Assembly (NCBI GenBank): GCA_947632635.1
Contig: CANRQA010000001.1
Location: 1 to 44,808 of the forward strand
Reading direction: 5' to 3'
DNA length: 44,808 bases
Source: an uncultured Clostridia bacterium
Lineage (GTDB): Bacteria; Bacillota; Clostridia; TANB77; CAG-465
Shown: in pieces, positions 2,381 through 38,151 of the stretch
Numbering within the stretch: position 1 is the first letter of the stretch
Layout of the letters: the number at the start of each line of letters is the position of its first letter
Made by a program: the position numbers and the translations under genes
Notes under the pieces: generated by a model
The model's database searches: none
What the model was told of the DNA's origin: nothing
The model's input: the letters and a program-made list of their open reading frames with translations, nothing else

Positions 2381-3949
2381 ATGTTGTATAACAAGAAGGT
2401 AACAAGATATATTTTTTCTTTTGTAATATTAACTTTAGTAGCTTTTATATTTCCAATAACTATTGAGGCTGCTAGTATATCAATAAATGTAAATACTAGT
2501 TTAGATGTAGGAGCTACAACAACACTTACAGTATCAATCCCAGGGGTAACTGGAAGATGTAATATATCATCTTCCAATCCTTCTGCTATAGCTTTGTCAA
2601 CATCAGCTGTGTGGATAGAAAAAGGAACAGGTGAAAGTGTAACTGTAACTGCAAAAGCAGCAGGGACTTCAACAATTACAGTAACACCTACTACTCTTGC
2701 AGATGATGCAACAGGAGACGATGTTCAAGCCTCTAGTAAACAAATAACAATAACAGCAAAAGAAAAAGTTGTAACACCACCACCAGCAGAAAATAATAAC
2801 GCAACTAATAATAACGCAAATACTAATACCAATAACAATAATACCAATAATAATGTAAATAATAATACTACTACACAAAAAAGTGGAAATAATTATTTAG
2901 CCTCATTAGAATTAAGTGAAGAGGGGCTTAACCCAAACTTTTCAAGAAATGTAACAAATTATTCAATGAGTGTAGGAGAGGGCGTACAAAATATTGAGGT
3001 TAATGCAAGAGCAGAAGATGCAAGATCAGCTGTTTATGTTGACGGTAACGAAAACTTACAAGACGGAGATAATAATATTTATATAACAGTAGTTGCACAA
3101 AATGGAGCTAGAAGAACATATACTATTGTTGTAAATAAATCTTCTGACCCTATTAAATCAAATTCATTTCTTGCAAATTTAGTAGTAAAAGATATGGTAC
3201 TTACTCCTGAATTTTCAAAAGAAGTATTAGAATATGATGGTGGTACAATAAAGACAAATGAAAGTAAACTTGAGATATATGCTTATCCTGAAATAGATAA
3301 TGCAACAGTTGAAATAATAGGAAATGAAAATTTAGTAGACGGAGAAAATACAGTAAAGATAAAAATTACATCTGAAAATGGTTTGTCAACTAAAGAATAT
3401 GTTATAAAATTTATAAAAGAAAAAGCAGATGAAACTGAAGTAGTAGAAAATAATGCATATGTAGATACAGAAAATGATAATAAACTAGTTTCGACTTTTA
3501 AAAATATATGGCAGGTTATAAAAAATAATGCATTATTACTAATTATGTACTTATTGGTAATAGTAGAGTATGTTCAAATAGTTTATTTATATAAAAAATT
3601 AAAGCAAAAAGAAAATAATTCAAAAAATGAAAAAGAATTTGATGAAAACGTTACTTTAGGACGTGAAATGGTAGATATAGAAACAAAATCAGTTGATGAA
3701 ACACCACTTACTCGTGATGATATAGTAAATAATGAAAATTCAAATAATGAATATAAAAGAAGAAATGCAGTAAATAATATAAGTAAAGAAGATGATGAAG
3801 TAAAAGATTTAACTCAAGAAAAAAAAGACCTTGAAAAAACAGTATATGACTCAATTGATAAAGATTTAGAAGATATAAATAAAAAATTAGATAATTTATC
3901 TTCTGAAGATGAGGCTTCTGATAATGAAGATACTGAAAAACAAGATTAG
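2381..3949 (+). CDS. Membrane-anchored protein with Big-like and two cadherin-like domains
   Basis: This 522-residue surface protein has no visible enzyme domain. In order it shows a signal peptide (about 1-31), a bacterial Ig-like region (about 33-125), an Asn/Thr-rich linker (about 138-168), two cadherin-like beta-sandwich domains (about 172-254 and 262-346, each starting with the Y/F-L-A-x-L pattern and containing G-N-E-N-L), one membrane segment (about 383-403) and an acidic, Lys/Glu-rich cytoplasmic tail of about 115 residues that may form coiled coil. GAAAGGAG precedes ATG 2381. It probably shares the transcript of the glucosaminidase gene, and a terminator follows. A structural or adhesive envelope role is inferred from architecture only. 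Confidence 0.75.
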   Translation: MLYNKKVTRYIFSFVILTLVAFIFPITIEAASISINVNTSLDVGATTTLTVSIPGVTGRCNISSSNPSAIALSTSAVWIEKGTGESVTVTAKAAGTSTITVTPTTLADDATGDDVQASSKQITITAKEKVVTPPPAENNNATNNNANTNTNNNNTNNNVNNNTTTQKSGNNYLASLELSEEGLNPNFSRNVTNYSMSVGEGVQNIEVNARAEDARSAVYVDGNENLQDGDNNIYITVVAQNGARRTYTIVVNKSSDPIKSNSFLANLVVKDMVLTPEFSKEVLEYDGGTIKTNESKLEIYAYPEIDNATVEIIGNENLVDGENTVKIKITSENGLSTKEYVIKFIKEKADETEVVENNAYVDTENDNKLVSTFKNIWQVIKNNALLLIMYLLVIVEYVQIVYLYKKLKQKENNSKNEKEFDENVTLGREMVDIETKSVDETPLTRDDIVNNENSNNEYKRRNAVNNISKEDDEVKDLTQEKKDLEKTVYDSIDKDLEDINKKLDNLSSEDEASDNEDTEKQD

Positions 3950-15670: not shown

Positions 15671-16592
15671 ATGGATGAAATTTTAGTTTTTGGACATAAA
15701 AGTCCTGATACAGATTCAGTTACTTCTGCTATTGTTATGGCAGAACTAGAAAAAAAATTAGGAAATAATGCGTGTGCTTGTGTACTTGGAAAATTAAATA
15801 AAGAAACAGAGTATGTTTTTAATTATTTAGGAATCGAAGCACCAAAATATATTGAAAAAGTTGATGAGAAAACAAAAGTTATATTAGTTGATCACAACGA
15901 ATTTAAGCAAAGTGTTGATGGAATAGAAAATGCTACAATATTAAAGGTAATTGACCATCATACTATGGACTTTAAAGTAGGTTATCAGTTATTCTATCAT
16001 GCAGAACCAGTACGGATGTAGTGCAACTGTGTTATATAAATTATATAAACAAAATAATGTTGAAATAGATAAAAAAATTGCAACTCTTATGCTTTCTGCT
16101 ATTATTTCTGATACATTGTTATTTAAATCTCCTACTTGCACAAAGGAAGATAAAGAAGTAGCAAGTAAACTTCAAGAAATAGCAGGAATAAATGTTGAAG
16201 AATATGGAATGGCTATGCTTAAAGCAGGAACTGATTTATCTGATTTTTCAGCAAATGAATTAATTACACTTGATGCAAAAGAATTTTTGATTGGTAATGT
16301 AAAAACAGTTGTTGCACAGGTAAATACTGCAAGTATTCCAGAAGTTCTTGAAAGAGAACAAGAAATAAAATCTGCAATAGAAGAATATATTAAAGCAAAT
16401 AATTTGGGTCTTTTCTTCTTTGTTATTACTGATATAATTAATAGCAATTCTCAAGCTATTGCACTTGGAGAAAACGCATCTCTTGCAGAAAAAGCATATA
16501 ATACAAAGTTTGAAAATAATACAGCATTTTTGCCTGGTGTAGTATCACGCAAAAAACAAGTTATACCAGTACTTACAGAAGCTGCAGAATAA
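15671..16592 (+). pseudogene. ppaC: Manganese-dependent inorganic pyrophosphatase, one-base frameshift
   Basis: This DHH-family enzyme hydrolyses pyrophosphate using Mn2+. The first part (15671-16021) carries GHKSPDTDS, LVDHNEF and the DHH motif in VIDHHTMDF. The second part (frame from about 16014 to 16592) carries GCSATVLYKLYK, ISDTLLFKSPT and the C-terminal SRKKQVIPVL. Reading EPV directly into GCSAT requires removing one base, C16013. With that removed the protein would be about 306 residues, the normal length. No other damage is visible. Either the gene is newly broken or the extra C is a sequence error; the otherwise perfect conservation favours error. plsY lies upstream. Confidence 0.85.
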
Positions 16593-25117: not shown

Positions 25118-26735
25118 GTGAGAATTACTTTTTATGGTGCGGCAAGAACAGTAACAGGTTCATGCCATATGGTTGAAGTAAATGATAAAAAATTTTTAAT
25201 AGATTGTGGCCTTTTTCAAGGAAAATTAACAGACCAAATGTTAAACTATGAGAGTTTTCCTTTTGATATAACTAAAATTGATTTTGTTATATTAACTCAT
25301 GCACATATTGATCATAGTGGTAGGATACCTAAACTATATAAAGAGGGATATAAAGGTGTTATATATGCAACTGAGGCTACTGTTGATTTATGTAGTATAA
25401 TGCTTGCAGATAGCGGTCATATACAAGAAAAGGAAATAGAATGGGTAAATAAAAAGAGAATGAGAGCTCGGTAAAAAACCAACAGAACCTATATATACAG
25501 CACAAGATGGTATAGATTCACTTGAGCTATTTAGAGGAGTATCATATGAGGAAGAAGTAGTAATTGATGATAATATTTCATTTAAATTATATGATGCTGG
25601 TCATATGCTTGGCTCAAGTATAGTTGAATTAAATATAACAGAAGATGGTAAGAAACAAAAAATAGTTTTCTCAGGTGACCTTGGAAATATTAATATGCCA
25701 ATAATAAAAGACCCAACATATATTAAGGGGACTGATTATCTTGTTGTTGAATCAACATATGGCGATAGAATTCATGGAGAAATGGAAGACCAGTCTGGTA
25801 AGTTTGTACAAATATTACTTGATACAATAGGTCGTGGTGGTAATGTTATAATTCCTTCATTTGCAGTAGGAAGAACGCAAGAAATATTATACGAAATAAA
25901 TAAATATGCTGCTATGAAAGGCTTAGGAGATAAAATAAAAAAAATACCAGTATATGTAGATAGTCCACTTGCTGTTAATGCTACAAAAATATTTGAATGT
26001 AATCCTGAATATTATGATGATGAGGCACTTAAATATTTACTTAAAGGCGATAATCCTTTGGAATTTGAAAATTTACATTTTGTGTCTACTGCAGAAGAAT
26101 CAAAAGCATTAAATGATGATATGACACCAAAAGTTATTATATCTGCAAGTGGTATGTGCGAAGTTGGTAGAATTAAACATCATTTAAAACATAATTTATA
26201 TAGACCTGAGTGTACAGTGCTTTTTGTAGGATTTCAAGCAGAAGGTACTTTAGGTAAAAAAATACTTAGCGGTGAAAAATTAGTAAAAATATTTGGAGAA
26301 GAAATAGCTGTAAATGCAGAAGTAAAATACTTAGATGCTTTTTCAGGTCATGCTGATAGAGATGGAATAATTACATGGATAGATAAAATGGAAGAAAAGC
26401 CTAAGAATATATTTATTGTACATGGCGAATATACTGCAGAACAGTCATTAAAAAATTATATATATGATAAGTTTCATATTCGTTCCGTAATACCAGGCTT
26501 TGAGGAAACTTACACTATCGATGGAACACTTGTTGAAGATAATTTACCTACATATAAATCAACTAGATTTGATATATTAGAAACTTTATCTTTCTTAAAA
26601 CAAGATGTTGACGATATGACAAATGCTGTAAAATCTGAATTAAAACATAATGTTGAAACAGATGACTTAAATGATATATTAGTAAAATTAAATGATGTAA
26701 AAGAATCACTTGCTAAATTAAAAAATAGAAAATAA
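25118..26735 (+). pseudogene. Beta-CASP metallo-beta-lactamase fold RNA hydrolase, one-base frameshift
   Basis: The intact protein would be about 538 residues and resembles bacterial relatives of the CPSF73-type beta-CASP nucleases, which cut RNA with two zinc ions. The N-terminal part has GAARTVTGSCH and the metal motif THAHIDHSGRIP (about residue 66). After the shift come DAGHMLGSS, FSGDLG, FAVGRTQE, SASGMCEVGRIKHHL and DAFSGHADRDG, covering the remaining metallo-lactamase and beta-CASP motifs. The frame is broken by one extra base, C25469, in what should read RMRAGKKPTEPIYT. No other lesion is seen. AGAGGAG precedes GTG 25118. The defect may be a sequence error. Confidence 0.85.
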
Positions 26736-28003: not shown

Positions 28004-28034
28004 TTTTTAAAGGTATATATTAGGGGTGAAAAAA

Positions 28035-30587
28035 ATGGAAGAAAATAGAGACTCTAGAAAAAAACACATTAAAAAAATGCCTATAAAAGGAAAGGACAGA
28101 TCCTCTCAAAATGGTGAACATACCAATAGGACTTTGGATGTTAATGGACAAACTAATTCTAAAAAGGGCAAAAAGAAAAATAAAAAAATAGGTTGGAAAA
28201 TATTTAGAATTTGTCTTTTTGTATTTATAGCGCTATTAATAGTTGGTGTTGGTGTTGTTTTAGGGGTTATTAGTGGAATTATTGATGAAACTGATAGTTT
28301 AGCTGAAGAAGAATTAGACGGAGTTAAACTAACATCTTTTGTTTATGATAAAGACGGAAATCAAATTGGAGAATTCTTTGATGAGGAAAATCGTGTTTCA
28401 ATAGAATATAAAGATATACCAACACACGTTGTTGATGCTATTGTAGCAATAGAGGATGAGCGTTTCTTTGAACATAAAGGTGTTGATCTTAAAAGAACAA
28501 TTGCGGCAATTGGTACATACATTTTAAATAAAGGGGATTCTACTTTTGGTGGAAGTACAATAACTCAACAATTAGTTAAAAATATTAAAGAGGATAATGA
28601 AAAAACTTGGAAAAGAAAGATAAGAGAGTGGTATAGGGCTTTTGTACTTGAATCTAAAGTTGATAAAGAAAGAATTTTTGCAGCTTATGCTAGTACCGTT
28701 TATTTAGGTGATGGAGCATATGGTGTAGAAGTTGCTGCACGTAATTATTTTGGTAAATCAATAAAAGATGTAAATATTGCAGAAGCAGCAGTTCTTGCAG
28801 CTGTTATTCAGTCACCTGAAGCTACAAATCCATATAGAAGTGATGAAGCAAAAGAAAAACTACTTGAAAGACAAAAAGTTGTACTTGCAAAAATGAAAGA
28901 ACTCGGAAAAATTACCGAAGAACAATATAATGAGGCTTTAAATTATGAAATAGTATTTACAAAAGCAAGTAATGAAACATCAAGCGGTGAAAAAATACAA
29001 TCATATTTTGTTGATGCAGTTTTTGAACAAGTAAAAAAAGACTTAATGGAACAATTAGGTTGGACTGAAGTTTCTGCTGTACAAAAATTATATACTGACG
29101 GATTAAAAATATATTCTACACAAGATACATCAGTTCAAAATGCAATTAATGATGCATATAACAATGACGCATGGTTTTATACTGATAGTGCAGGAACATT
29201 TATGCAAGGTGCTACTGTAGTTATTGAACAATCTACTGGTAATGTTGTAGGATTAATAGGTGGAGCAGATACAAAAACTGGTAATCGTCAATTTAATAGA
29301 GCAACTCAAGCACATAGGCAACCTGGTTCTTGTATGAAACCTTTAGGTGCATATGGACCTGCAATGGAACTTGGTTTAATTGGTCCTGGATCTGGAATAG
29401 ATGATTCAAATTTCCCAGCCGGAACTGCATATAACCCTCACAATTACTATGCTGGATTTAATGGCTTTGTTACTGTACGTAATGCAATAGCACAATCTAT
29501 GAATTTACCTGCTGTTCGTACAAATATGAAAGTTGATATAAGTTATGCATTTAATTTTGCAAAAAATGCAGGTTTAAAAGATTTAAGACCTGCAAGTAAT
29601 CCAACAGCTGATGGACAACACGATGAAAATACAGCTTCAATGGCACTTGGTGGTGTGACTGATGGATTTACTGTTATGGAAATGGCTAATGCATATGCAA
29701 CAATTGCAAATGGTGGTTTATACATTGAGCCAAAATTATATACAAAAGTTGTTGATAAAAATGGAAAAGAACTTTTAACTACAACTACTGAAGCAAAAAG
29801 AGTTATGAAAGATTCAACTGCATATATGTTAACAAGTTGTTTACAAACTGTTGTTACAGGTGGTACAGCAACTGGATATATAAGGGCTGGAAATATGCCT
29901 ATAGCAGGAAAAACTGGTAATACAAACGATGATAAAGACCAATGGTTCTGTGGCTTTACTCCGTATTATACAATAGCTTGTTGGAATGGATATGATGATC
30001 CTAAACCAATTGGATATAGGACTGGTACTAGAACAAGTTATCCATATACTTCTATGCGTACATTTAACAGTATTGTTAATGCAATAAGTGCAGGTAAAGA
30101 AGTAAAACAATTTGAGCGTCCAGCTTCCGTTATAAATGCATCAGTATGTAGAGATTCTGGTCTTGTTGCAACAGATGCTTGTAGAACAGATCCAAGAGGC
30201 GATAGAACTATAAATGATATGTTTGCTTCTGGTACAGTTCCAACTGCAACTTGTACTGTTCATAAAAAAGTAAAAATATGTAATGATACTGGTAAATTAG
30301 CTGCTGAATATTGTCCTAATACTTCTGAAAAATCATTTATATCAAGAGATTATGAACCAGCGACTCATCCGGCAGATTGGCAGTATATGGTACCTACTGA
30401 AACTTGTACAGTACATACAACTCCACCTGCTACTGAAAAGCCAAAAGAAGAAGAAAAAGATGATAAAGATAAAGACGATAATAAAGTAGATGTATATGGT
30501 AGCGGTAGTGGCAGTGGCTCTAGTACAACTAAACCATCTAGTTCTACTACAACAACTACTACAACTACAACAAATAAAAAAACATAG
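28035..30587 (+). CDS. Class A penicillin-binding protein (PBP1A-like)
   Basis: This bifunctional enzyme polymerises glycan strands and cross-links peptides in the cell wall. The 850-residue protein has a basic cytoplasmic tail, a membrane segment (about residues 55-80), a transglycosylase domain with AIEDERFFEHKGVD and FGGSTITQQLVKN, and a transpeptidase domain with the active serine in GSCMKPLGAYG, SMN and the KTG triad in IAGKTGNTN. A C-terminal region with cysteine-containing repeats (VCRDSG, TCTVHKK, ICNDTG, TCTVH) ends in a Lys/Glu/Asp then Ser/Thr-rich tail. ATG 28035 is chosen because AGGGG at 28022-28026 is then correctly spaced; the GTG at 28026 overlaps that site. Confidence 0.93.
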   Translation: MEENRDSRKKHIKKMPIKGKDRSSQNGEHTNRTLDVNGQTNSKKGKKKNKKIGWKIFRICLFVFIALLIVGVGVVLGVISGIIDETDSLAEEELDGVKLTSFVYDKDGNQIGEFFDEENRVSIEYKDIPTHVVDAIVAIEDERFFEHKGVDLKRTIAAIGTYILNKGDSTFGGSTITQQLVKNIKEDNEKTWKRKIREWYRAFVLESKVDKERIFAAYASTVYLGDGAYGVEVAARNYFGKSIKDVNIAEAAVLAAVIQSPEATNPYRSDEAKEKLLERQKVVLAKMKELGKITEEQYNEALNYEIVFTKASNETSSGEKIQSYFVDAVFEQVKKDLMEQLGWTEVSAVQKLYTDGLKIYSTQDTSVQNAINDAYNNDAWFYTDSAGTFMQGATVVIEQSTGNVVGLIGGADTKTGNRQFNRATQAHRQPGSCMKPLGAYGPAMELGLIGPGSGIDDSNFPAGTAYNPHNYYAGFNGFVTVRNAIAQSMNLPAVRTNMKVDISYAFNFAKNAGLKDLRPASNPTADGQHDENTASMALGGVTDGFTVMEMANAYATIANGGLYIEPKLYTKVVDKNGKELLTTTTEAKRVMKDSTAYMLTSCLQTVVTGGTATGYIRAGNMPIAGKTGNTNDDKDQWFCGFTPYYTIACWNGYDDPKPIGYRTGTRTSYPYTSMRTFNSIVNAISAGKEVKQFERPASVINASVCRDSGLVATDACRTDPRGDRTINDMFASGTVPTATCTVHKKVKICNDTGKLAAEYCPNTSEKSFISRDYEPATHPADWQYMVPTETCTVHTTPPATEKPKEEEKDDKDKDDNKVDVYGSGSGSGSSTTKPSSSTTTTTTTTTNKKT

Positions 30588-30625: not shown

Positions 30626-30638
30626 GTAACTACTAAGC

Positions 30639-30664
30639 AAAAAGGGCTCCAAAAAAGGAACCCT
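30639..30664 (-). terminator. Terminator of WG-repeat gene 1
   Basis: On the minus strand GGGTTCC, a six-T loop and GGAGCCC (one T-G pair) are followed by TTTTT. Related hairpins follow all five WG genes. Confidence 0.85.
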
Positions 30665-30738
30665 AAATTTATTTGTATATCTAATATTTATTTTTAAAAT
30701 TACAATTAAAAATTCGTAGACATATAAGATTGTTATAA

Positions 30739-32412
30739 CTAGTTTGCAGTAACATGAATAAGCTGATATTTACCATGAAGTTTTACTTTAGAAACTCCAT
30801 TTACAACGTTATCAACATTATTATATTTAATGGGAATAACTACATTGCCATTAGTATCAATAAGACCCCATTTGTCATTAAGGCATACTTTTGCAAATCC
30901 ATTTACAAATTCAGATGCATAATTATATTTGATGGGAGTAACTATACTACCATTAGTATCAATAAAACCATATTTATTATCAAGTATAACTCTAGCAAGT
31001 CCATTTTCAAAATCAAAAGCATCATCATATTTAATGGGAGTAATTTCTTTACCATTAATATTGATAAATCCCCATTTTTTATTAATACATACTCTTGCAA
31101 ATCCATTTACAAAATCATAAACAAGATCATATTTGATGGGAGTAATTTCTTTACCAGTAGTATCAATAAAACCGCGTTTGTTATTAAGGCTTACTATAGA
31201 AAATCCATTTACAAAACTTAAAACAATATTATCATATTTTATTGGGGTGATTTCTTTGCCATTAGTATTGATAAATCCCAATTTTTTATTAAGTGACACT
31301 TTTGCAAGCCCATTTTCAAAATTAGCAATATAATCGTATTTAATGCGAGTAACTTTTTTGCCACTAGTATTAATAACACCATATCTATCATTAATTCTTA
31401 CGTTTGCAAGTCCATTTACAAAATCATCAGCATAATCATATATGATTTCAGTTATTTCATTTCCAGTAGTATCAATAAAGCCACATTTGCCTTTAATACA
31501 TACCCTAGCAAATCCATTTACAAAATTTAAAACTTCATCATACTTAATTTTGGTTATCTCTTTACTATTAGTATCAATAAAACCAAATTTGCCATTAAGT
31601 TTTACTTTAGCAAACCCATTTACAAAATTTAAAACTTCATCATACTTAATTTTGGTTATCTCTTTACCATTAGTATCAATAAAACCAAGTTTGCCATTAA
31701 GTTTTACTCTAGCAAATTCATTTACAAAATCATAAGCATAATCATACTTAAATTCAGTTATTTCTTTTCCGGTAATATCGATAAAACCCCATTTGTCATT
31801 AATGCATACCATAGCAAACCCGTTTTCAAAATCATAAGCATCATCATATGTGATTTCACTTATCTCATTACCATAAGTGTCAATGAAGCCATATTTGTCT
31901 TTGAGTTTTACTCTAGCAAATCCATTTACAAAATCATATGCATAATCATACTTAATTTCAGTTATCTCTTTACCAGTAGTATCAATAAAACCGCATTTAT
32001 CATTAAATTCAACTTTAGCAAACCCATTTGCAAAATCATAAACATCATCATATTTTATTTCAGTAATTTCTTTACCAGTAGTATCAATAAAACCGCATTT
32101 ATCATTAAGTTCAACTCTAGCAAATCCATTTGCAAAATTATATGCATAATCATACTTAATTTCGATTATCTCTTTACCAGTGGTATCGATAAAACCCCAT
32201 TTATTATTAAGGCATACCGTAGCAAATCCATTTGTAAAATCATAAGCACTATCATATATGATTTTAGTTATTTCTTTACCATAAGCGTCAATAAAACCAT
32301 ATTTCCCATTGAGTTTTACTCTAACAAACCCATTTTCAAAAAAACCAATAATATCATATTTTATTCTACAAGTTCTTTCTACATCCATAGTTACAAAAGA
32401 ATTTCGTGCCAT
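30739..32412 (-). CDS. WG-repeat protein 1 (557 residues, about 15 repeats)
   Basis: Almost the whole protein consists of 34-residue WG-type (KWG) repeats. A typical unit begins K-x-G-F-I-D-T-x-G-K-E-I and ends with the N-G-F-A segment before a beta strand. About 15 full units plus a C-terminal partial are visible, after a short N-terminal cap (MARNSFVTMDVERTCRIKYD). The residue after the first K varies (W, C, Y, L, F or R). There is no signal peptide or membrane segment, so the product is probably cytoplasmic. WG repeats are thought to form beta-rich, propeller-like surfaces for binding; no function is known. Repeats 7 and 8 are near-identical in DNA. AAAGGAGGA precedes ATG 32412. It is the largest of five tandem paralogues. 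Confidence 0.85.
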   Translation of the reverse strand: MARNSFVTMDVERTCRIKYDIIGFFENGFVRVKLNGKYGFIDAYGKEITKIIYDSAYDFTNGFATVCLNNKWGFIDTTGKEIIEIKYDYAYNFANGFARVELNDKCGFIDTTGKEITEIKYDDVYDFANGFAKVEFNDKCGFIDTTGKEITEIKYDYAYDFVNGFARVKLKDKYGFIDTYGNEISEITYDDAYDFENGFAMVCINDKWGFIDITGKEITEFKYDYAYDFVNEFARVKLNGKLGFIDTNGKEITKIKYDEVLNFVNGFAKVKLNGKFGFIDTNSKEITKIKYDEVLNFVNGFARVCIKGKCGFIDTTGNEITEIIYDYADDFVNGLANVRINDRYGVINTSGKKVTRIKYDYIANFENGLAKVSLNKKLGFINTNGKEITPIKYDNIVLSFVNGFSIVSLNNKRGFIDTTGKEITPIKYDLVYDFVNGFARVCINKKWGFININGKEITPIKYDDAFDFENGLARVILDNKYGFIDTNGSIVTPIKYNYASEFVNGFAKVCLNDKWGLIDTNGNVVIPIKYNNVDNVVNGVSKVKLHGKYQLIHVTAN

Positions 32413-32467
32413 AATTAAAAGTCCTCCTTTAAAATTATTTAAATGATTAGATTACTAAATTTACTAG

Positions 32468-32496
32468 ATTATATCATGGTATCGGCTATAGTGCAA
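32468..32496 (-). promoter_or_regulatory. Promoter of WG-repeat gene 1
   Basis: Minus strand TTGCAC (32496-32491), 17 bases, then TATAAT (32473-32468) with an extended -10 TG. The same element precedes the other four WG genes, where the -35 is TTGCAT. Confidence 0.75.
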
Positions 32497-32566
32497 GTAA
32501 ATATGGCATTTTCTTAAAATAGATATAAACTTAAAATTTTCATTAACCTAAAAAAGTATATTGAAA

Positions 32567-32593
32567 ATAAAAGGGTTCCAAAAAAGGAACCCT
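32567..32593 (-). terminator. Terminator of WG-repeat gene 2
   Basis: Perfect GGGTTCC/GGAACCC stem on the minus strand with a T-only loop, followed by TTTTA. Confidence 0.85.
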
Positions 32594-32613
32594 AATAGAT
32601 AAGATTTTTATAA

Positions 32614-33264
32614 CTAGTTTACAGTAACTCGAATAAGCTGATATTTACCATGAAGTTTTACTTTAGAAACTCCATTTACAACATTATCAATATCATCATA
32701 TTTAATTGAAATAACTTCATTGCCATTAATATCAATAAGACCACATTTGTTATTAAGTTCAACTTTAGCAAATCCATTTACAAAATCATATGCATAATCA
32801 TATTTAATTGAAATAACTTCATTGCCACTCAAATCAATAAAACCAATTTTATCATTAATGCGCACCCTAGCAAATCCGTTTACAAAATTCCAAACATCAT
32901 CATACTTAATTTTAGTTATCTCTTTTCCAGTAGTATCAATAAAACCGCAGTTATCATTAAGTTCAACTCTAGCAAATCCACTTGCAAAACCAAAAACTTC
33001 ATCATACTTAATTTCAGTTATCTCTTTTCCAGTTGTATCAATAAAACCGCATTTATCATTAAGCTCGACTCTAGCGAACCCATTTACAAAATCATAAACG
33101 TAGTCATATTTGATTTCAGTTATTTCATTACCATGAGTGTCAATGAAACCATATTTTCCATTGAGTTTTACTATAGCAAACCCATTTTCAAAAAAACCAA
33201 TATTATCATATTTTCTTCTACAAGTTCTTTCTACATCCGTAGTTACAAAAGAATTTTGTGCCAT
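32614..33264 (-). CDS. WG-repeat protein 2 (216 residues, about 5 repeats)
   Basis: This is the shortest paralogue: about five full WG-type units and a partial. The N-terminal cap (MAQNSFVTTDVERTCRRKYD) is nearly the same as in gene 1, and the C-terminal end (KLHGKYQLIRVTVN) matches the gene 1 ending closely. Repeat 2 has NGF changed to SGF. Conserved termini with a variable number of middle units suggest the genes grow and shrink by unequal exchange between repeats. Promoter, leader, ribosome site and terminator are the shared cassette type. No signal peptide is present and the function is unknown. Confidence 0.83.
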   Translation of the reverse strand: MAQNSFVTTDVERTCRRKYDNIGFFENGFAIVKLNGKYGFIDTHGNEITEIKYDYVYDFVNGFARVELNDKCGFIDTTGKEITEIKYDEVFGFASGFARVELNDNCGFIDTTGKEITKIKYDDVWNFVNGFARVRINDKIGFIDLSGNEVISIKYDYAYDFVNGFAKVELNNKCGLIDINGNEVISIKYDDIDNVVNGVSKVKLHGKYQLIRVTVN

Positions 33265-33319
33265 AATTAAAAGTCCTCCTTTAAAATTATTTAATGGTTC
33301 ATTTATAAAAATTTATTAG

Positions 33320-33348
33320 ATTATATCATGGTATCAGCTATAATGCAA
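33320..33348 (-). promoter_or_regulatory. Promoter of WG-repeat gene 2
   Basis: Minus strand TTGCAT (33348-33343), 17 bases, TATAAT (33325-33320), with TG one base before the -10. Confidence 0.78.
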
Positions 33349-33445
33349 GTAAATATGTAAATAGATATAAATTGAAAATTTAAAAAGCTTAAATAAATTA
33401 TTTTTTATTAATAAACATTTAATATAAAAAAATCTATTAAAAGAT

Positions 33446-33470
33446 AAAAGGGCTCCAAAAAAGGAACACT
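33446..33470 (-). terminator. Degraded terminator of WG-repeat gene 3
   Basis: The same hairpin as in the sister cassettes, but one arm reads GTGTTCC instead of GGGTTCC on the minus strand, leaving a mismatch near the stem base. The T tail remains. Confidence 0.55.
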
Positions 33471-33490
33471 AATAGAGAAGATTTTTATAA

Positions 33491-34246
33491 CTAGCTTGCA
33501 TTAACATGAATAAAATGATATTTGCCATTAAGTTTTGCCATAACAACTCCATTTACAACGTTATTAACATTGTCATATTTAATTGGAATAACTTCATTGC
33601 CACTGGTATCAATAAGTCCAAATTTGTTATTAAGCAATACTCTTGAAAATCCATTTACAAAATCACAGATGTAATCATATTTAATATGAGTAATTTCTTT
33701 ACCATTAGTATTAATAAGACCCCATTTACCATCAAGATTTACTTGAGCAAGCCCATTTACAAAATTATAAACAAAATCATATTTAATGTCTGTTATTTCA
33801 TTGCCATTTTCATTAATGACCCCCCATTTTTTATTAAGTATTACATGAGCAAACCCATTTACAAAAGTTGAAACATAATCATATTTGATGTCTGTTATTT
33901 CCTTACCACTTTCATCAATGAATCCACATTTGTTATTAAGGCATACTTTTGCAAATCCATTTACAAATTTGTTAACGCAATCATATTTAATGTCTGTTAT
34001 TTCATTGCCATTTTCATCAATGAAACCCCATTTGTTATTAAAGCATACTTTTGAAAACCCATTTACAAATTCATCGAGGTAATCGTATTTAATGGAGGTA
34101 ACTTCATTACCATCAATATCAATAATACCATATTTGTTGTGAAGTTTTACTTTAGCTAAACCATTGATAAAAATATCACTAAAATCATCATATTTTGTTG
34201 CACATATTTTTGCTAAATCTTTAGTTATAAAACAAACTCCTACCAT
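33491..34246 (-). CDS. WG-repeat protein 3 (251 residues, about 6 repeats, most divergent)
   Basis: This copy has about six full WG-type units and a partial. It is the most divergent. Its N-terminal cap (MVGVCFITKDLAKICATKYD) differs from the MARNSFVT form of its neighbours, and its units often read GFIDENGNEITDIKYD. The C-terminal unit (NGVVMAKLNGKYHFIHVNAS) keeps the family pattern. It may be the oldest copy, or one that has exchanged less. Promoter and leader are well conserved, while its terminator is damaged. The product is probably cytoplasmic and its function is unknown. Confidence 0.83.
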   Translation of the reverse strand: MVGVCFITKDLAKICATKYDDFSDIFINGLAKVKLHNKYGIIDIDGNEVTSIKYDYLDEFVNGFSKVCFNNKWGFIDENGNEITDIKYDCVNKFVNGFAKVCLNNKCGFIDESGKEITDIKYDYVSTFVNGFAHVILNKKWGVINENGNEITDIKYDFVYNFVNGLAQVNLDGKWGLINTNGKEITHIKYDYICDFVNGFSRVLLNNKFGLIDTSGNEVIPIKYDNVNNVVNGVVMAKLNGKYHFIHVNAS

Positions 34247-34301
34247 AATTAAAAATCCTCCTTTAAAATTATTTAAATGATTAAATTATAAAATTTATTA
34301 G

Positions 34302-34330
34302 ATTATATCATGGTATCAGCTATAATGCAA
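34302..34330 (-). promoter_or_regulatory. Promoter of WG-repeat gene 3
   Basis: Minus strand TTGCAT (34330-34325), 17 bases, TATAAT (34307-34302), with TG one base before the -10. Confidence 0.78.
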
Positions 34331-34483
34331 GATATAGTAAATAGATATAAATTGAAAATTATAAAAAGTTTATATAGATTATTTCCCATTAATAAACTTT
34401 TAATATTAAAGAAAATAACATAAAGTAATTTACTGTTATAAAACTTAAAATTATATTAAATATTAAAAAAGGTATATTAAAAA

Positions 34484-34509
34484 AATAAAGGGCTCCAAAA
34501 AGGAACCCT
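34484..34509 (-). terminator. Terminator of WG-repeat gene 4
   Basis: Minus strand GGGTTCC, a five-T loop and GGAGCCC, followed by TTTA. Confidence 0.8.
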
Positions 34510-34529
34510 AATAGATAAGATTTTTATAA

Positions 34530-35741
34530 CTAGTTTGAGTTAACATGAATAGTATGATATTTACCATGCAGTTTTACTTTAGTAACTCCATTTACAACGT
34601 TATCAACATCATTATATTTAATAGGAATAACTACAGTACCATTAGTATCAATAAGCCCCCATTTGTTATTAAGTTCAACTTTAGCAAATCCATTTACAAA
34701 TCCAGATGCATAATCATATTTAATGGGAATAACTTCACTACCAGTAGTATCAATAAAACCATATTTATTATCAAGTATAACTCTTCTAACAAGACCATTT
34801 GCAAAATCATATGCATCATCATATTTGATGGGAGTAATTTCTTTACCATTAATATTGATAAATCCCCATTTTTTATTAATGCGTACTCTAGCAAGGTCAT
34901 TTTTAAAATTTAAAACTTCATCATATTTAATTTTTGTTATCTCTTTACCAGTAGTATCAATAAAACCATATTTATCATTAAGTTCAACCCTAGCAAGTCC
35001 ATTTACAAAATCATATGCATAATCATACTTAATTTCAGTGATTTCTTTACCAGTAGTATCAATAAAACCACATTTATCATTACGTTTTACCATAGCAAAT
35101 CCATTTTCAAAATCATAAGCATCATCATATGTGATTTCAGTTATTTCCTTACCATAAGTGTCAATAAAACCATATTTGCTATTAAGTTTTACCACAGCAA
35201 ATCCATTTTCAAAATCATAAGCATCATCATATGTGATTTCAGTTATTTCTTTTCCAGTAGTATCAATAAAACCGCATTTATCATCAAGCTCAACTCTAGC
35301 AAATCCATTTGCAAAACAATATGCATAATCATACTTAATTTTAGTAATTTCTTTACCAGTAGTATCAATAAAACCGCATTTATCATCAAGCTCAACTCTA
35401 GCAAATCCATTTGCAAAATCATATGCATAATCATACTTAATTTTAGTTATTTCTTTTCCAGTAGTATCAATAAAACCATATTTACCATTAAGTTCTACCA
35501 CAGCAAATCCATTTGCAAAATTATGAGCACCGTCATATTTTATTTCAGTGATTTCTTCCCCAGTAATATCAATAAACCCCCATTTGTCATTAAGGCATAC
35601 CCTAGCAAACCCATTTTTAAAATTTAAAACATCATCATATATGATTTTAGTTATTTTTTTACCACAAGAGTCAATGAAACCATATTTGTTTTTGCGCTTT
35701 ACTTTAGCTACATCTGCAGTTACAAAAGAATTTCGTGCCAT
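34530..35741 (-). CDS. WG-repeat protein 4 (403 residues, about 11 repeats, shortened cap)
   Basis: About eleven full WG-type units and a partial are visible. The N-terminus is MARNSFVTADVAKVKRKNKYG: the first 10-11 residues match gene 1, then the rest of the cap (the CRIKYD...FFENGF part) is missing and the sequence joins directly to an AKVK-type strand, an apparent internal deletion of about 18-20 residues. Units 3 and 4 are almost identical in DNA over a 102-bp period (about 35254-35417). Unit 9 carries one extra residue (GLVRRVILDN). Both suggest active slippage or recombination. The cassette promoter and ribosome site are intact. Function is unknown. Confidence 0.83.
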   Translation of the reverse strand: MARNSFVTADVAKVKRKNKYGFIDSCGKKITKIIYDDVLNFKNGFARVCLNDKWGFIDITGEEITEIKYDGAHNFANGFAVVELNGKYGFIDTTGKEITKIKYDYAYDFANGFARVELDDKCGFIDTTGKEITKIKYDYAYCFANGFARVELDDKCGFIDTTGKEITEITYDDAYDFENGFAVVKLNSKYGFIDTYGKEITEITYDDAYDFENGFAMVKRNDKCGFIDTTGKEITEIKYDYAYDFVNGLARVELNDKYGFIDTTGKEITKIKYDEVLNFKNDLARVRINKKWGFININGKEITPIKYDDAYDFANGLVRRVILDNKYGFIDTTGSEVIPIKYDYASGFVNGFAKVELNNKWGLIDTNGTVVIPIKYNDVDNVVNGVTKVKLHGKYHTIHVNSN

Positions 35742-35796
35742 AATTAAAAGTCCTCCTTTAAAATTATTTAAATGATTAGATTACTAAATTTACTAG

Positions 35797-35825
35797 ATTA
35801 TATCATGGTATTGGCTATAATGCAA
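35797..35825 (-). promoter_or_regulatory. Promoter of WG-repeat gene 4
   Basis: Minus strand TTGCAT (35825-35820), 17 bases, TATAAT (35802-35797), with TG one base before the -10. Confidence 0.78.
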
Positions 35826-35991
35826 GTAAATATAGCATTTTTTTAAAATGCATATAAATTGAAGACTTAAAAAGTTTAAATAAATTATTTTTTATTAATA
35901 AACATTTAATATTAAAATAAATAACATAAAATATTTACTGTTATAACACTAAAATTTTTGTAATATTTAAACTAAAAAGTTTATAAAAAAT

Positions 35992-36016
35992 AAAAGGGCT
36001 CCAAAAAAGGAACCCT
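35992..36016 (-). terminator. Terminator of WG-repeat gene 5
   Basis: Minus strand GGGTTCC, a six-T loop and GGAGCCC, followed by TTTTA. Confidence 0.82.
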
Positions 36017-36036
36017 AATAGATAAGATTTTTATAA

Positions 36037-36891
36037 CTAGTTTGAGTTAACATCAATAAACTGATATGCACCATTAAGTTTTACTCTAGTAATTCCCATT
36101 ACAACTTTATCAATGTCGTCATATTTAATTGGAATAACTTCATTGCCATTAGTATCAATAAGACCCCATTTGTTATTAATACACACTTTAGCAAAACCAT
36201 TTTCAAAATCATATGCATAATCATATTTAATGCGAATAACTTCATTGCCATTAGTATCAATAAAACCATATTTATAATCAAGTATAATTATAGCAAATCC
36301 ATTTACAAAATTAAAAATAAAATCGTATTTAATTGGAATAACTTCATTACCATTAGTATCAATAAGACCACATTTATTTTTAAGCATAACTCTAGCAAGT
36401 CCGTTTTCAAAATCAAAAACATTATTATATTTAATTTTAGTTATCTTTTTTCCTGTAGTATTGATAAAGCCAAGTTTATTATTAATGCGTACTATAGCAA
36501 ATCCGTTTACAAAATTACTAACATCATTATACTTAACTTTAGTTATTTCATTACCATAAGAGTTAACGAAACCATATTTGTCTTTGAGTTTTACTATAGC
36601 AAAGCCATTTTCAAAATCAAAAACCTCATCATACTTAATTTCAGTTATTTCTTTTCCAGTAGTATCAATAAAACCGCATTTATCATCAAGTTCAACTCTA
36701 GCAAATCCATTTATAAAATCATAAGCGTAATCATATTTGATTTCAGTTATTTCATAACCATAAATGTCAATGAAACCATATTTTCCATCGAGTTTTACTT
36801 TTGCAAACCCATTTACAAAATTATAAATAAAATCATATTTTCTTTCACAAATTTTTTCTACATCCGTAGTTACAAAAGAATTTTGTGTCAT
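36037..36891 (-). CDS. WG-repeat protein 5 (284 residues, about 7 repeats)
   Basis: About seven full WG-type units plus a partial follow the common cap (MTQNSFVTTDVEKICERKYD). The last units (GLIDTNGNEVIPIKYDDIDK) and the ending AYQFIDVNSN are the family type. It is the first gene of the array in its reading direction, adjacent to the + strand phosphodiester-glycosidase gene. Promoter, leader and terminator follow the common pattern, which implies duplication of whole cassettes rather than reading frames alone. No export signal is visible. Function is unknown. Confidence 0.83.
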   Translation of the reverse strand: MTQNSFVTTDVEKICERKYDFIYNFVNGFAKVKLDGKYGFIDIYGYEITEIKYDYAYDFINGFARVELDDKCGFIDTTGKEITEIKYDEVFDFENGFAIVKLKDKYGFVNSYGNEITKVKYNDVSNFVNGFAIVRINNKLGFINTTGKKITKIKYNNVFDFENGLARVMLKNKCGLIDTNGNEVIPIKYDFIFNFVNGFAIIILDYKYGFIDTNGNEVIRIKYDYAYDFENGFAKVCINNKWGLIDTNGNEVIPIKYDDIDKVVMGITRVKLNGAYQFIDVNSN

Positions 36892-36946
36892 AATTAAAAG
36901 TCCTCCTTTAAAATTATTTAAATGAATAAATTATAAAATTTATTAG

Positions 36947-36975
36947 ATTATATCATGGTATCAGCTATAATGCAA
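36947..36975 (-). promoter_or_regulatory. Promoter of WG-repeat gene 5
   Basis: Minus strand TTGCAT (36975-36970), 17 bases, TATAAT (36952-36947), with TG one base before the -10. Confidence 0.78.
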
Positions 36976-37087
36976 GTAAATATTGCGCTTTTATGCTCTA
37001 TAAATAAAAATATCAATTGAAAAAGTAGGCTTTTTATTTTCTTTTAAACTGACTTTAAAGCAAATATAAAAACTTTGTATATATTTG

Positions 37088-37179: not shown

Positions 37180-38151
37180 ATGAAAAAATTTTTAAAAATA
37201 TTTGGATTTTTTATGTTATTTCAAATAATATATATACCACTTTTAACAATTGGGCTTGTATATTATGGGCCATTTACTAGTACAAGAGAAATGATTGTAA
37301 CAACTGCTATGACTACGATGACACATCAATATTTTGCAACATGGTTTTTAAGTGATGAGCAAATACAAGATATATTAAAAAGAAATAGACCACAAGAAAT
37401 AATTGAGGATCAAGAGCTTGACCAAATTGAAATAGCAGAGCAAGAAGAAAACAAAAATCCAACAGATGGAATTGAACTTATTGATGTAAGTTCTGATACA
37501 TTTAATGGATATTTACTTATTGTAAATGATCCCTCACGTGTAAAACTTGCTACTGCACCAAGACTTGGTGTAGTTGGAGCTACTACGTCACAAATTATAG
37601 AAGCAAATGACGCAATTGGTGGAATAAATGCTGGTGGTTTCCAAGATGATGCATTAGGAACAGGTGGTAAACCATCTGGACTTATAATTTCAAATGGTGA
37701 AATTGTAAGTACTGATAGTGAATGGGCAAATTACAGCTTTGTAGGAATAGATAATGATAACAAAATGGTTGTTTCAAATTCTATGAATTTTAGTAGAATT
37801 AAGAATTTGAATTTACATAGTGCTGTTTCTTTTGGACCAGTTATAATTATAAACGGACAGCCTACTATAAGAAGTGGTAATGGTGGTTGGGGAATACAGC
37901 CAAGAACTGCAATTGCACAAAGAAAAGACGGAGCTATTTTAATGCTTGTTATAGACGGAAGACAAGCAGATAGTTTAGGTGCTACTTTAAAAAATGTTCA
38001 AGATATTTTATTACAATATGATGCATATAACGCATTTAACTTAGATGGTGGTGCATCGAGTACAATGGTATTTGATAATAAACTTGTAAATAAACCAAGT
38101 GATATTATGGGTCAAAGATATGTACCATGTGCATTTATTATAACAAAATAG
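37180..38151 (+). CDS. Phosphodiester glycosidase (NAGPA-like) domain envelope protein
   Basis: This 323-residue protein has an N-terminal membrane segment (about residues 7-30) and an extracytoplasmic domain of the NAGPA/phosphodiester-glycosidase family (about 110-322). Members remove GlcNAc from phosphodiesters in animals, and bacterial relatives are linked to surface polysaccharides. Typical pieces are GGINAGGFQDDALGTGGKPSG, SAVSFGPVIIINGQ, WGIQPRTAIAQRKDGAILMLV, DGRQADSLGA and FNLDGGASSTMVF. The catalytic-site pattern looks complete. The next gene, 27 bases downstream, is also membrane-anchored, and uppP follows, so a cell-envelope operon is likely. Confidence 0.85.
   Translation: MKKFLKIFGFFMLFQIIYIPLLTIGLVYYGPFTSTREMIVTTAMTTMTHQYFATWFLSDEQIQDILKRNRPQEIIEDQELDQIEIAEQEENKNPTDGIELIDVSSDTFNGYLLIVNDPSRVKLATAPRLGVVGATTSQIIEANDAIGGINAGGFQDDALGTGGKPSGLIISNGEIVSTDSEWANYSFVGIDNDNKMVVSNSMNFSRIKNLNLHSAVSFGPVIIINGQPTIRSGNGGWGIQPRTAIAQRKDGAILMLVIDGRQADSLGATLKNVQDILLQYDAYNAFNLDGGASSTMVFDNKLVNKPSDIMGQRYVPCAFIITK

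What the first reader, a model, noticed from the sequence alone, without database searches (positions are those of the whole stretch)
30639..36975. Tandem array of five WG-repeat gene cassettes with variable repeat number
Five minus-strand paralogues lie side by side (216, 251, 284, 403 and 557 residues), each nearly all 34-residue WG-type repeats. Termini are conserved while the number of middle units varies (about 5, 6, 7, 11, 15). Promoter, leader, ribosome site, terminator and even spacers are homologous, so whole cassettes were duplicated. WG repeats are known as a family, but no function is established. A tunable set of cytoplasmic binding proteins, or a variation reservoir, is inference.
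Basis: partly seen in the sequence, partly recalled or inferred. Interest (0 to 1): 0.8.

Follow-up and report, generated by a model that had tools for sequence, protein, structure and literature searches.

The report
Species-specific explosion of WG-repeat genes
In one uncultured gut-type bacterium a single repeat-protein gene appears to have been copied into at least twenty separately expressed genes of different lengths, while nearly all its close relatives have none of this type, which makes the function of this orphan repeat family newly testable.

Summary
In detail: five minus-strand genes of 557, 216, 251, 403 and 284 aa, each almost wholly WG repeats (Pfam PF14903, E 1e-61 to 1e-178), each with its own promoter, leader and terminator. 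It is larger than reported. The assembly holds at least 20 WG genes (179 repeats, 1.2% of bases) on 12 contigs. All 19 genes with a readable start share an extended -10 (TGATATAAT) and a leader motif, CCATTAAATAATTTTAARGGAGG. At up to 2 mismatches that motif occurs 18 times, always before a WG gene. Of 27 congeners only one (G090) has such a cassette, after dnaJ, where this genome also has one. Fifteen congeners have 115-203 bp where the window has the array. Paralogues keep their ends and gain or lose internal 34-residue units. The scaffold is constrained (pN/pS 0.2-0.4); ten positions are free (about 1.2, near the simulated neutral value). AlphaFold predicts confident periodic arrays (pLDDT 93 and 91) of propeller-blade-like units with no solved homologue by sequence. 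Best reading: an amplified repertoire of cytosolic modular binding proteins under birth-and-death evolution. The ligand, and a role in conflict with phages or toxins, are inference. Variation within one strain was not testable.

The parts
30739..32412 (-). WG cassette gene 5 (E557), 557 aa, 16 repeats counted
   Evidence: AF2 pLDDT 90.6 over the whole array
32614..33264 (-). WG cassette gene 4 (D216), 216 aa, 6 repeats
   Evidence: AF2 pLDDT 93.1, pTM 0.82
33491..34246 (-). WG cassette gene 3 (C251), 251 aa, 7 repeats, the most divergent of the five
34530..35741 (-). WG cassette gene 2 (B403), 403 aa, 11 repeats; end of N-cap and part of first unit deleted
36037..36891 (-). WG cassette gene 1 (A284), 284 aa, 8 repeats
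36892..36982 (-). promoter (TTGCAT...TGATATAAT) and 55-nt leader with TTAAATAATTTTAAAGGAGG, cassette 1
35742..35832 (-). promoter and leader, cassette 2
34247..34331 (-). promoter and leader, cassette 3
33265..33355 (-). promoter and leader, cassette 4
32413..32503 (-). promoter and leader, cassette 5
35987..36036 (-). 3' tail and intrinsic terminator (AGGGTTCC...GGAGCCCT), cassette 1; similar tails end the other cassettes
   Evidence: sequence; alignment
30636..30668 (-). terminator of cassette 5, set about 50-70 bp further from the stop than in the others
28026..30587 (+). PBP1A-like gene, left flank; adjacent to the 37180 gene in 15 congeners (name from sequence knowledge)
37180..38151 (+). 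NAGPA-like (phosphodiester glycosidase family) gene, right flank of the empty site in congeners; name from sequence knowledge, not a family scan

Best explanation
A WG-repeat gene with its own promoter, leader and terminator was amplified in this lineage into at least 20 separately transcribed genes, some in tandem (five here, three on C31) and the rest dispersed. Whole cassettes duplicate, and 102-bp units inside them are duplicated or deleted, most simply by recombination between repeats, so the ends stay fixed while length varies (shown by comparison; the recombination step is inferred). Each product is a protein without a signal-peptide-like start: a short N-terminal helix, then 5 to about 22 propeller-blade-like units in a periodic array (predicted). 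About ten positions per unit vary without constraint on a constrained scaffold. I infer that the family works as a repertoire of cytosolic modular binding proteins, and, less surely, that the ligands are changing proteins of phages, mobile elements or rival bacteria, because the expansion is species-specific and looks like birth-and-death evolution. The shared -10 and leader imply common control of the set (inferred).
For: Genome-wide family. Leader motif only at WG genes: 18 of 18 hits at up to 2 mismatches, control 0; -10 box present in 19 of 19 while the promoter spacer is 50% identical. Species specificity; empty site in 15 congeners; dnaJ-adjacent cassette shared only with G090. Fixed ends and changing middles, also against a related cassette from rabbit-gut contigs. 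Constraint on the scaffold and none on ten positions, same positions in both halves of the data. Confident periodic models.
Against: No ligand, partner gene or effector domain was found; PADLOC has no hit for the WG protein. Simulated neutral pN/pS (0.75-1.16) nearly covers the observed 1.15-1.34 at free positions, so positive selection is not shown. The assembly is a fragmented draft (98 contigs), and 8 of the 12 WG contigs have a WG gene within about 350 bp of a contig end, so counts are minima and structures near the breaks are uncertain.
Confidence: 0.55

Rival explanations
1. Dosage model: the copies do one job on one ligand (for example a storage, scaffolding or envelope-associated role) and the species needs more of the protein; the variable positions are simply unconstrained surface.
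For: pN/pS at the variable positions is near the neutral expectation; all copies share promoter, leader and N-cap.
Against: Paralogues differ widely in length and C-terminal type; a dosage need does not predict unit gain and loss.
Confidence: 0.25
2. Non-adaptive spread: cassettes multiply by transposon-linked or recombinational duplication in a small drift-prone genome and are mostly tolerated.
For: DDE transposase genes lie beside WG genes on C3 and, by eye, on a rabbit contig; a WG match with stops is seen in G039.
Against: The 19 genes with a readable start have no internal stop; scaffold pN/pS 0.2-0.4; -10 box and leader conserved while the promoter spacer has diverged.
Confidence: 0.12
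3. A conflict-specific version of the best explanation: the proteins are immunity or decoy factors against toxins of competitors or phage proteins, each paralogue matching one threat. It overlaps the best explanation and is scored as a sub-case.
For: Species-specific amplification, birth-and-death pattern and variable positions resemble known immunity-gene arrays (inference from general knowledge).
Against: No linked toxin, secretion or defence operon; the MNT/HepT pair on C31 and the DUF4143 ATPase on C46 are isolated neighbours.
Confidence: 0.15
4. Assembly or binning artefact: repeat-rich contigs from several organisms were pooled into one draft genome.
For: Fragmented draft; pure-WG contigs turn up in two unrelated rabbit bins.
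Against: The five-gene array sits inside a long contig with genus-typical flanks; the dnaJ contig is genus-typical; one leader and promoter joins the cassettes on all WG contigs where a start is present.
Confidence: 0.05

Closest known systems
WG_beta_rep (Pfam PF14903), annotated by NCBI as 'WG repeat-containing protein'
   Same: Same repeat by profile score, 34-35 residues with the conserved G-F-I-D...G core.
   Different: Many of the relatives found elsewhere (Bacteroidota and others) begin with a signal-peptide-like stretch or carry extra domains. Here they are WG-only, without such a start, with a shared N-cap helix, a shared leader and at least 20 copies.
Single WG gene after dnaJ in congener G090 (locus L178)
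   Same: Same promoter and leader, same site after dnaJ, internal N-cap motif.
   Different: One copy found and a degenerate N-terminus; not amplified in that 85% complete genome.
Beta-propellers, including designed Cake proteins and PQQ-type blades
   Same: Blade-like local fold; Cake designs align at 19-22% identity where most other rows give 4-14%.
   Different: Global rmsd mostly 6-12 A (216-aa model), 34-aa units instead of 4-stranded blades (blade definition: PMC8458387 abstract), and 5 to 22 units, so a closed ring is unlikely for the long ones.
Amplified recognition-repeat families with hypervariable positions (LRR/VLR-like), recalled from general knowledge
   Same: Constrained scaffold plus variable positions, variable unit number, multigene family.
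   Different: No evidence of somatic or programmed assembly; ligands unknown.

Membership tests
WG_beta_rep PF14903 | Match above the curated cut-off with multiple repeats | tested here: met
   205-579 bits against cut-off 25.6, 6-15 stretches per protein
WG_beta_rep PF14903 | 34-35 residue unit with W-G core | tested here: met
   126 in-register units; G at positions 1 and 7 invariant (also required by the search pattern), W/Y/C commonest at position 0
Closed beta-propeller | Blade-like antiparallel unit | tested here: inconclusive
   Foldseek and VIA-align rank propellers first, but Z at most 8.4 with rmsd about 11 A for the 216-aa model
Closed beta-propeller | Ring closure with a fixed small number of blades | tested here: inconclusive
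   Unit number 5 to 22 in homologous genes argues against a fixed ring; coordinates not available
Co-regulated multigene family (regulon-like set) | Shared promoter or leader element specific to the set | tested here: met
   Motif at 18 of 18 sites upstream of WG genes, control 0; -10 box 19 of 19
Co-regulated multigene family (regulon-like set) | Joint change of expression | not testable with these tools
   No expression data at hand
Contingency / phase-variable locus | Repeat-number variation within one strain or population | not testable with these tools
   One genome per species; no reads; units are mostly about 73% identical in DNA
Anti-phage defence system | Match to a described defence protein or operon | tested here: not met
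   PADLOC-DB: no hit for the WG protein
Secreted or surface WG proteins | Signal peptide or lipoprotein start | tested here: not met
   By eye: N-termini of the type M(A/T)xNSFVTxDVExxC and MTxxGFxNxDVExMC lack a hydrophobic core; no dedicated predictor was run

The most novel reading that the evidence does not exclude
A bacterial repertoire of intracellular recognition proteins: one amplified WG scaffold, expressed from a common leader, whose paralogues bind different and changing targets (phage, plasmid or rival proteins) through hypervariable blade-face residues and variable length, comparable in logic to repeat-based immune receptors but without an attached effector domain.
Probability: 0.2. 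Interest if true: 0.85.

Novelty: new variant of a known kind. Interest (0 to 1): 0.55.

Why it matters
WG repeats are common in bacteria, and the open literature held here gives no function for them. This case adds three handles. A WG-specific promoter-leader finds nearly every cassette by sequence alone. A plausible single-copy ancestor sits after dnaJ in a sister species. A within-genus contrast (20+ genes against 0-1 of this type) makes the biological role testable by comparing species. The clean split between constrained and free positions shows where to look for a binding face.

Tried and rejected
Phage or plasmid cargo: tblastn finds only distant WG proteins, none above 60% identity; the leader motif has no exact match in 2.9 million viral contigs; two IMG/VR contigs carry a 45% relative and were not pursued. 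Structured leader RNA: the consensus fold has no pairs and energies equal shuffles. Positive selection at variable positions: a neutral simulation with AT bias gives pN/pS 0.75-1.16, so 1.15-1.34 is not proof. Solved-structure homologues by sequence: none. Weak Pfam hits to DUF896, hSac2, TcdA1_RBD_3 and GnsAB_toxin and NCBIfam hits on the WG proteins look like composition artefacts of the repeat: no single stretch passes on its own. Rabbit bins Lapin-017 bin6 and bin44 as a sister genome: their best match to the 37180 gene is only 38-44% identical, so their pure-WG contigs are probably misbinned or transferred; I use them only as homologous sequence.

Full report
OBSERVATION. The five ORFs are at the stated place and strand and are almost wholly WG repeats. 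The unit is 34 residues or 102 bp. A profile built from 126 in-register units counts 16, 6, 7, 11 and 8 repeats in the 557-, 216-, 251-, 403- and 284-aa genes. Each has its own -35/-10, 55-nt leader, strong ribosome site and G+C-rich hairpin with T run. Upstream identity among the five is 76-95%, downstream 55-83%. The 403-aa gene lacks the end of the N-cap and part of unit 1.

THE ARRAY IS PART OF A GENOME-WIDE FAMILY. Searching the window's own genome (1.59 Mb, 98 contigs) with PF14903 returned 150 repeats, the number scored, on 12 contigs. Reading those contigs gives 20 genes or gene ends: 5 on C1, 3 on C31, 2 each on C46 and C86, and one each on C3, C13, C18, C21, C32, C51, C62 and C76; 179 repeats and 19.6 kb, 1.2% of the assembly. 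Complete genes run from 216 to 800 aa. In eight of the twelve contigs a WG gene lies within about 350 bp of a contig end (positions), as expected if the repeats break the assembly, so the true number is probably higher.

A DIAGNOSTIC PROMOTER-LEADER. All 19 genes with a readable start have TGATATAAT 51-56 nt before the start codon, with the -10 box about 95% identical between cassettes and the promoter spacer only 50%. The motif CCATTAAATAATTTTAARGGAG with up to 2 mismatches occurs 18 times in the genome; by position, each is directly upstream of a WG gene; the reversed control has 1 hit at 3 mismatches and 0 at 2. The nineteenth, C31 gene c, has a one-base deletion in the motif. Across 25 cassettes including G090 the core is nearly invariant. 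No RNA structure is supported. The set therefore has a common element whose nature, transcriptional or post-transcriptional, is unknown.

ORIGIN. In 37 relatives, the 23 congeners have 0-4 repeats while this genome has at least 150; some other families of the order have up to 38. With the N-cap query over 287 genomes of the order, a near-identical cassette appears only here; the best other match is G090 of the same genus. The leader pattern hits a WG gene in one of 27 congeners, G090; the three single hits in other congeners (G008, G016, G018) were not tied to WG genes and were not inspected. In G090 the WG gene follows dnaJ, and in this genome the C18 cassette also follows dnaJ; none of the other congener dnaJ loci fetched shows WG repeats on the DNA held, which is limited to a few hundred bases after the gene. 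In 15 congeners the window's flanking genes, PBP1A-like and NAGPA-like, are separated by 115-203 bp without any WG gene. The simplest history is an ancestral cassette after dnaJ, later amplified in this species. G090 is 85% complete, so this is a best reading, not proof.

HOW IT CHANGES. E557 and B403 align with conserved ends and several extra internal units in E557; C31 b and c, A284 and D216, and C76 against its related gene on a rabbit-gut contig show the same pattern. Some unit pairs are 94-99% identical in DNA (C31 c units 6 and 8, B403 units 2 and 3), so unit duplication has continued recently, but the median dS between units is about 0.55-0.7, so most of the family is older. Recombination between 102-bp repeats is the simplest mechanism and is inferred.

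CONSTRAINT. Positions G1, F2, I3, D4, G7, E9, I10, Y15, F21, G24, A26 and V28 are nearly fixed, while positions 0, 6, 12, 17, 19, 20, 22, 27, 29 and 32 vary. Choosing the ten most variable positions on one half of the units and testing on the other gives pN/pS 1.34 and 1.21 at those positions against 0.33 and 0.40 elsewhere, and both halves choose the same ten positions. In close pairs the scaffold value is 0.21. A neutral simulation with AT-biased mutation gives 0.75-1.16, so the variable positions are unconstrained or slightly faster; positive selection is not shown. The 19 genes with a readable start are open throughout (the C18 one to the contig end). The family is therefore under selection for its scaffold.

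STRUCTURE. AlphaFold2 on the 216-aa protein with 20 sequences in the alignment gives pLDDT 93.1 and pTM 0.82: helix 9-18 (the N-cap) and then repeating strands. The 557-aa protein gives pLDDT 90.6 over all units, pTM 0.60. Foldseek and VIA-align put beta-propellers first, with poor global fit (216-aa model: Z at most 8.4, rmsd mostly 6-12 A; 557-aa model: Z up to 10.9 but rmsd up to about 16 A). Designed Cake propellers stand out by identity, 18-22%. I read this as propeller-blade-like units in an open array; the global shape is not settled. In strand 25-30 the variable residues 27 and 29 alternate with conserved 26, 28 and 30, and 17 and 19 flank 18, as expected for one exposed sheet face (inference; no coordinates).

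FUNCTION. The N-termini have no signal-peptide-like start, unlike many relatives in Bacteroidota. No partner operon, effector domain or defence match was found. The open-access papers held here give no function. I commit to a repertoire of cytosolic binding proteins as most likely (0.55), with dosage (0.25) as the main rival, and treat a conflict role as plausible but unproven.

LIMITS. One draft genome for the species, no reads, no name for the organism, no model coordinates, no within-strain data.

Noticed in passing
window 15671-16021 and 15999-16592: Two overlapping ORFs read like one DHH-type pyrophosphatase broken by a frameshift (true mutation or sequencing error). Name from sequence knowledge, not a family scan.
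   Followed up: no
window 25118-25474 and 25605-26735: Two ORFs read like one beta-CASP metallo-beta-lactamase nuclease broken in two. Name from sequence knowledge.
   Followed up: no
L026 (own contig C13) 631-2662: A second PBP1A-like gene, split into two ORFs, directly upstream of a WG gene (2804-3571); so a PBP1A-like neighbour occurs at two WG sites.
   Followed up: no
L031 (own contig C21) 11638-12096, 14026-14481, 14703-15152: Three paralogous small membrane-type proteins with their own shared leader CTAAAAAATAATTTTAAAGGAG, a second amplified family in this genome.
   Followed up: partly
L022 (own contig C31) 2208-2900 and 1807-2091: An MNT/HepT toxin-antitoxin-like pair lies between WG genes, and a truncated copy of a permease end lies nearby, suggesting segmental duplication.
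   Followed up: partly
L027 (own contig C3) 973-2133; L147 2030-3184: DDE transposase genes next to WG genes, a possible vehicle for dispersal (for L027; L147 by eye).
   Followed up: partly
L064, L065, L066: Contigs made only of WG cassettes assigned to two different rabbit-gut bins; probably misbinned pieces of a relative of this species.
   Followed up: partly
L193, L194: Two IMG/VR contigs (48 kb and 236 kb) encode a 45% identical WG protein.
   Followed up: no
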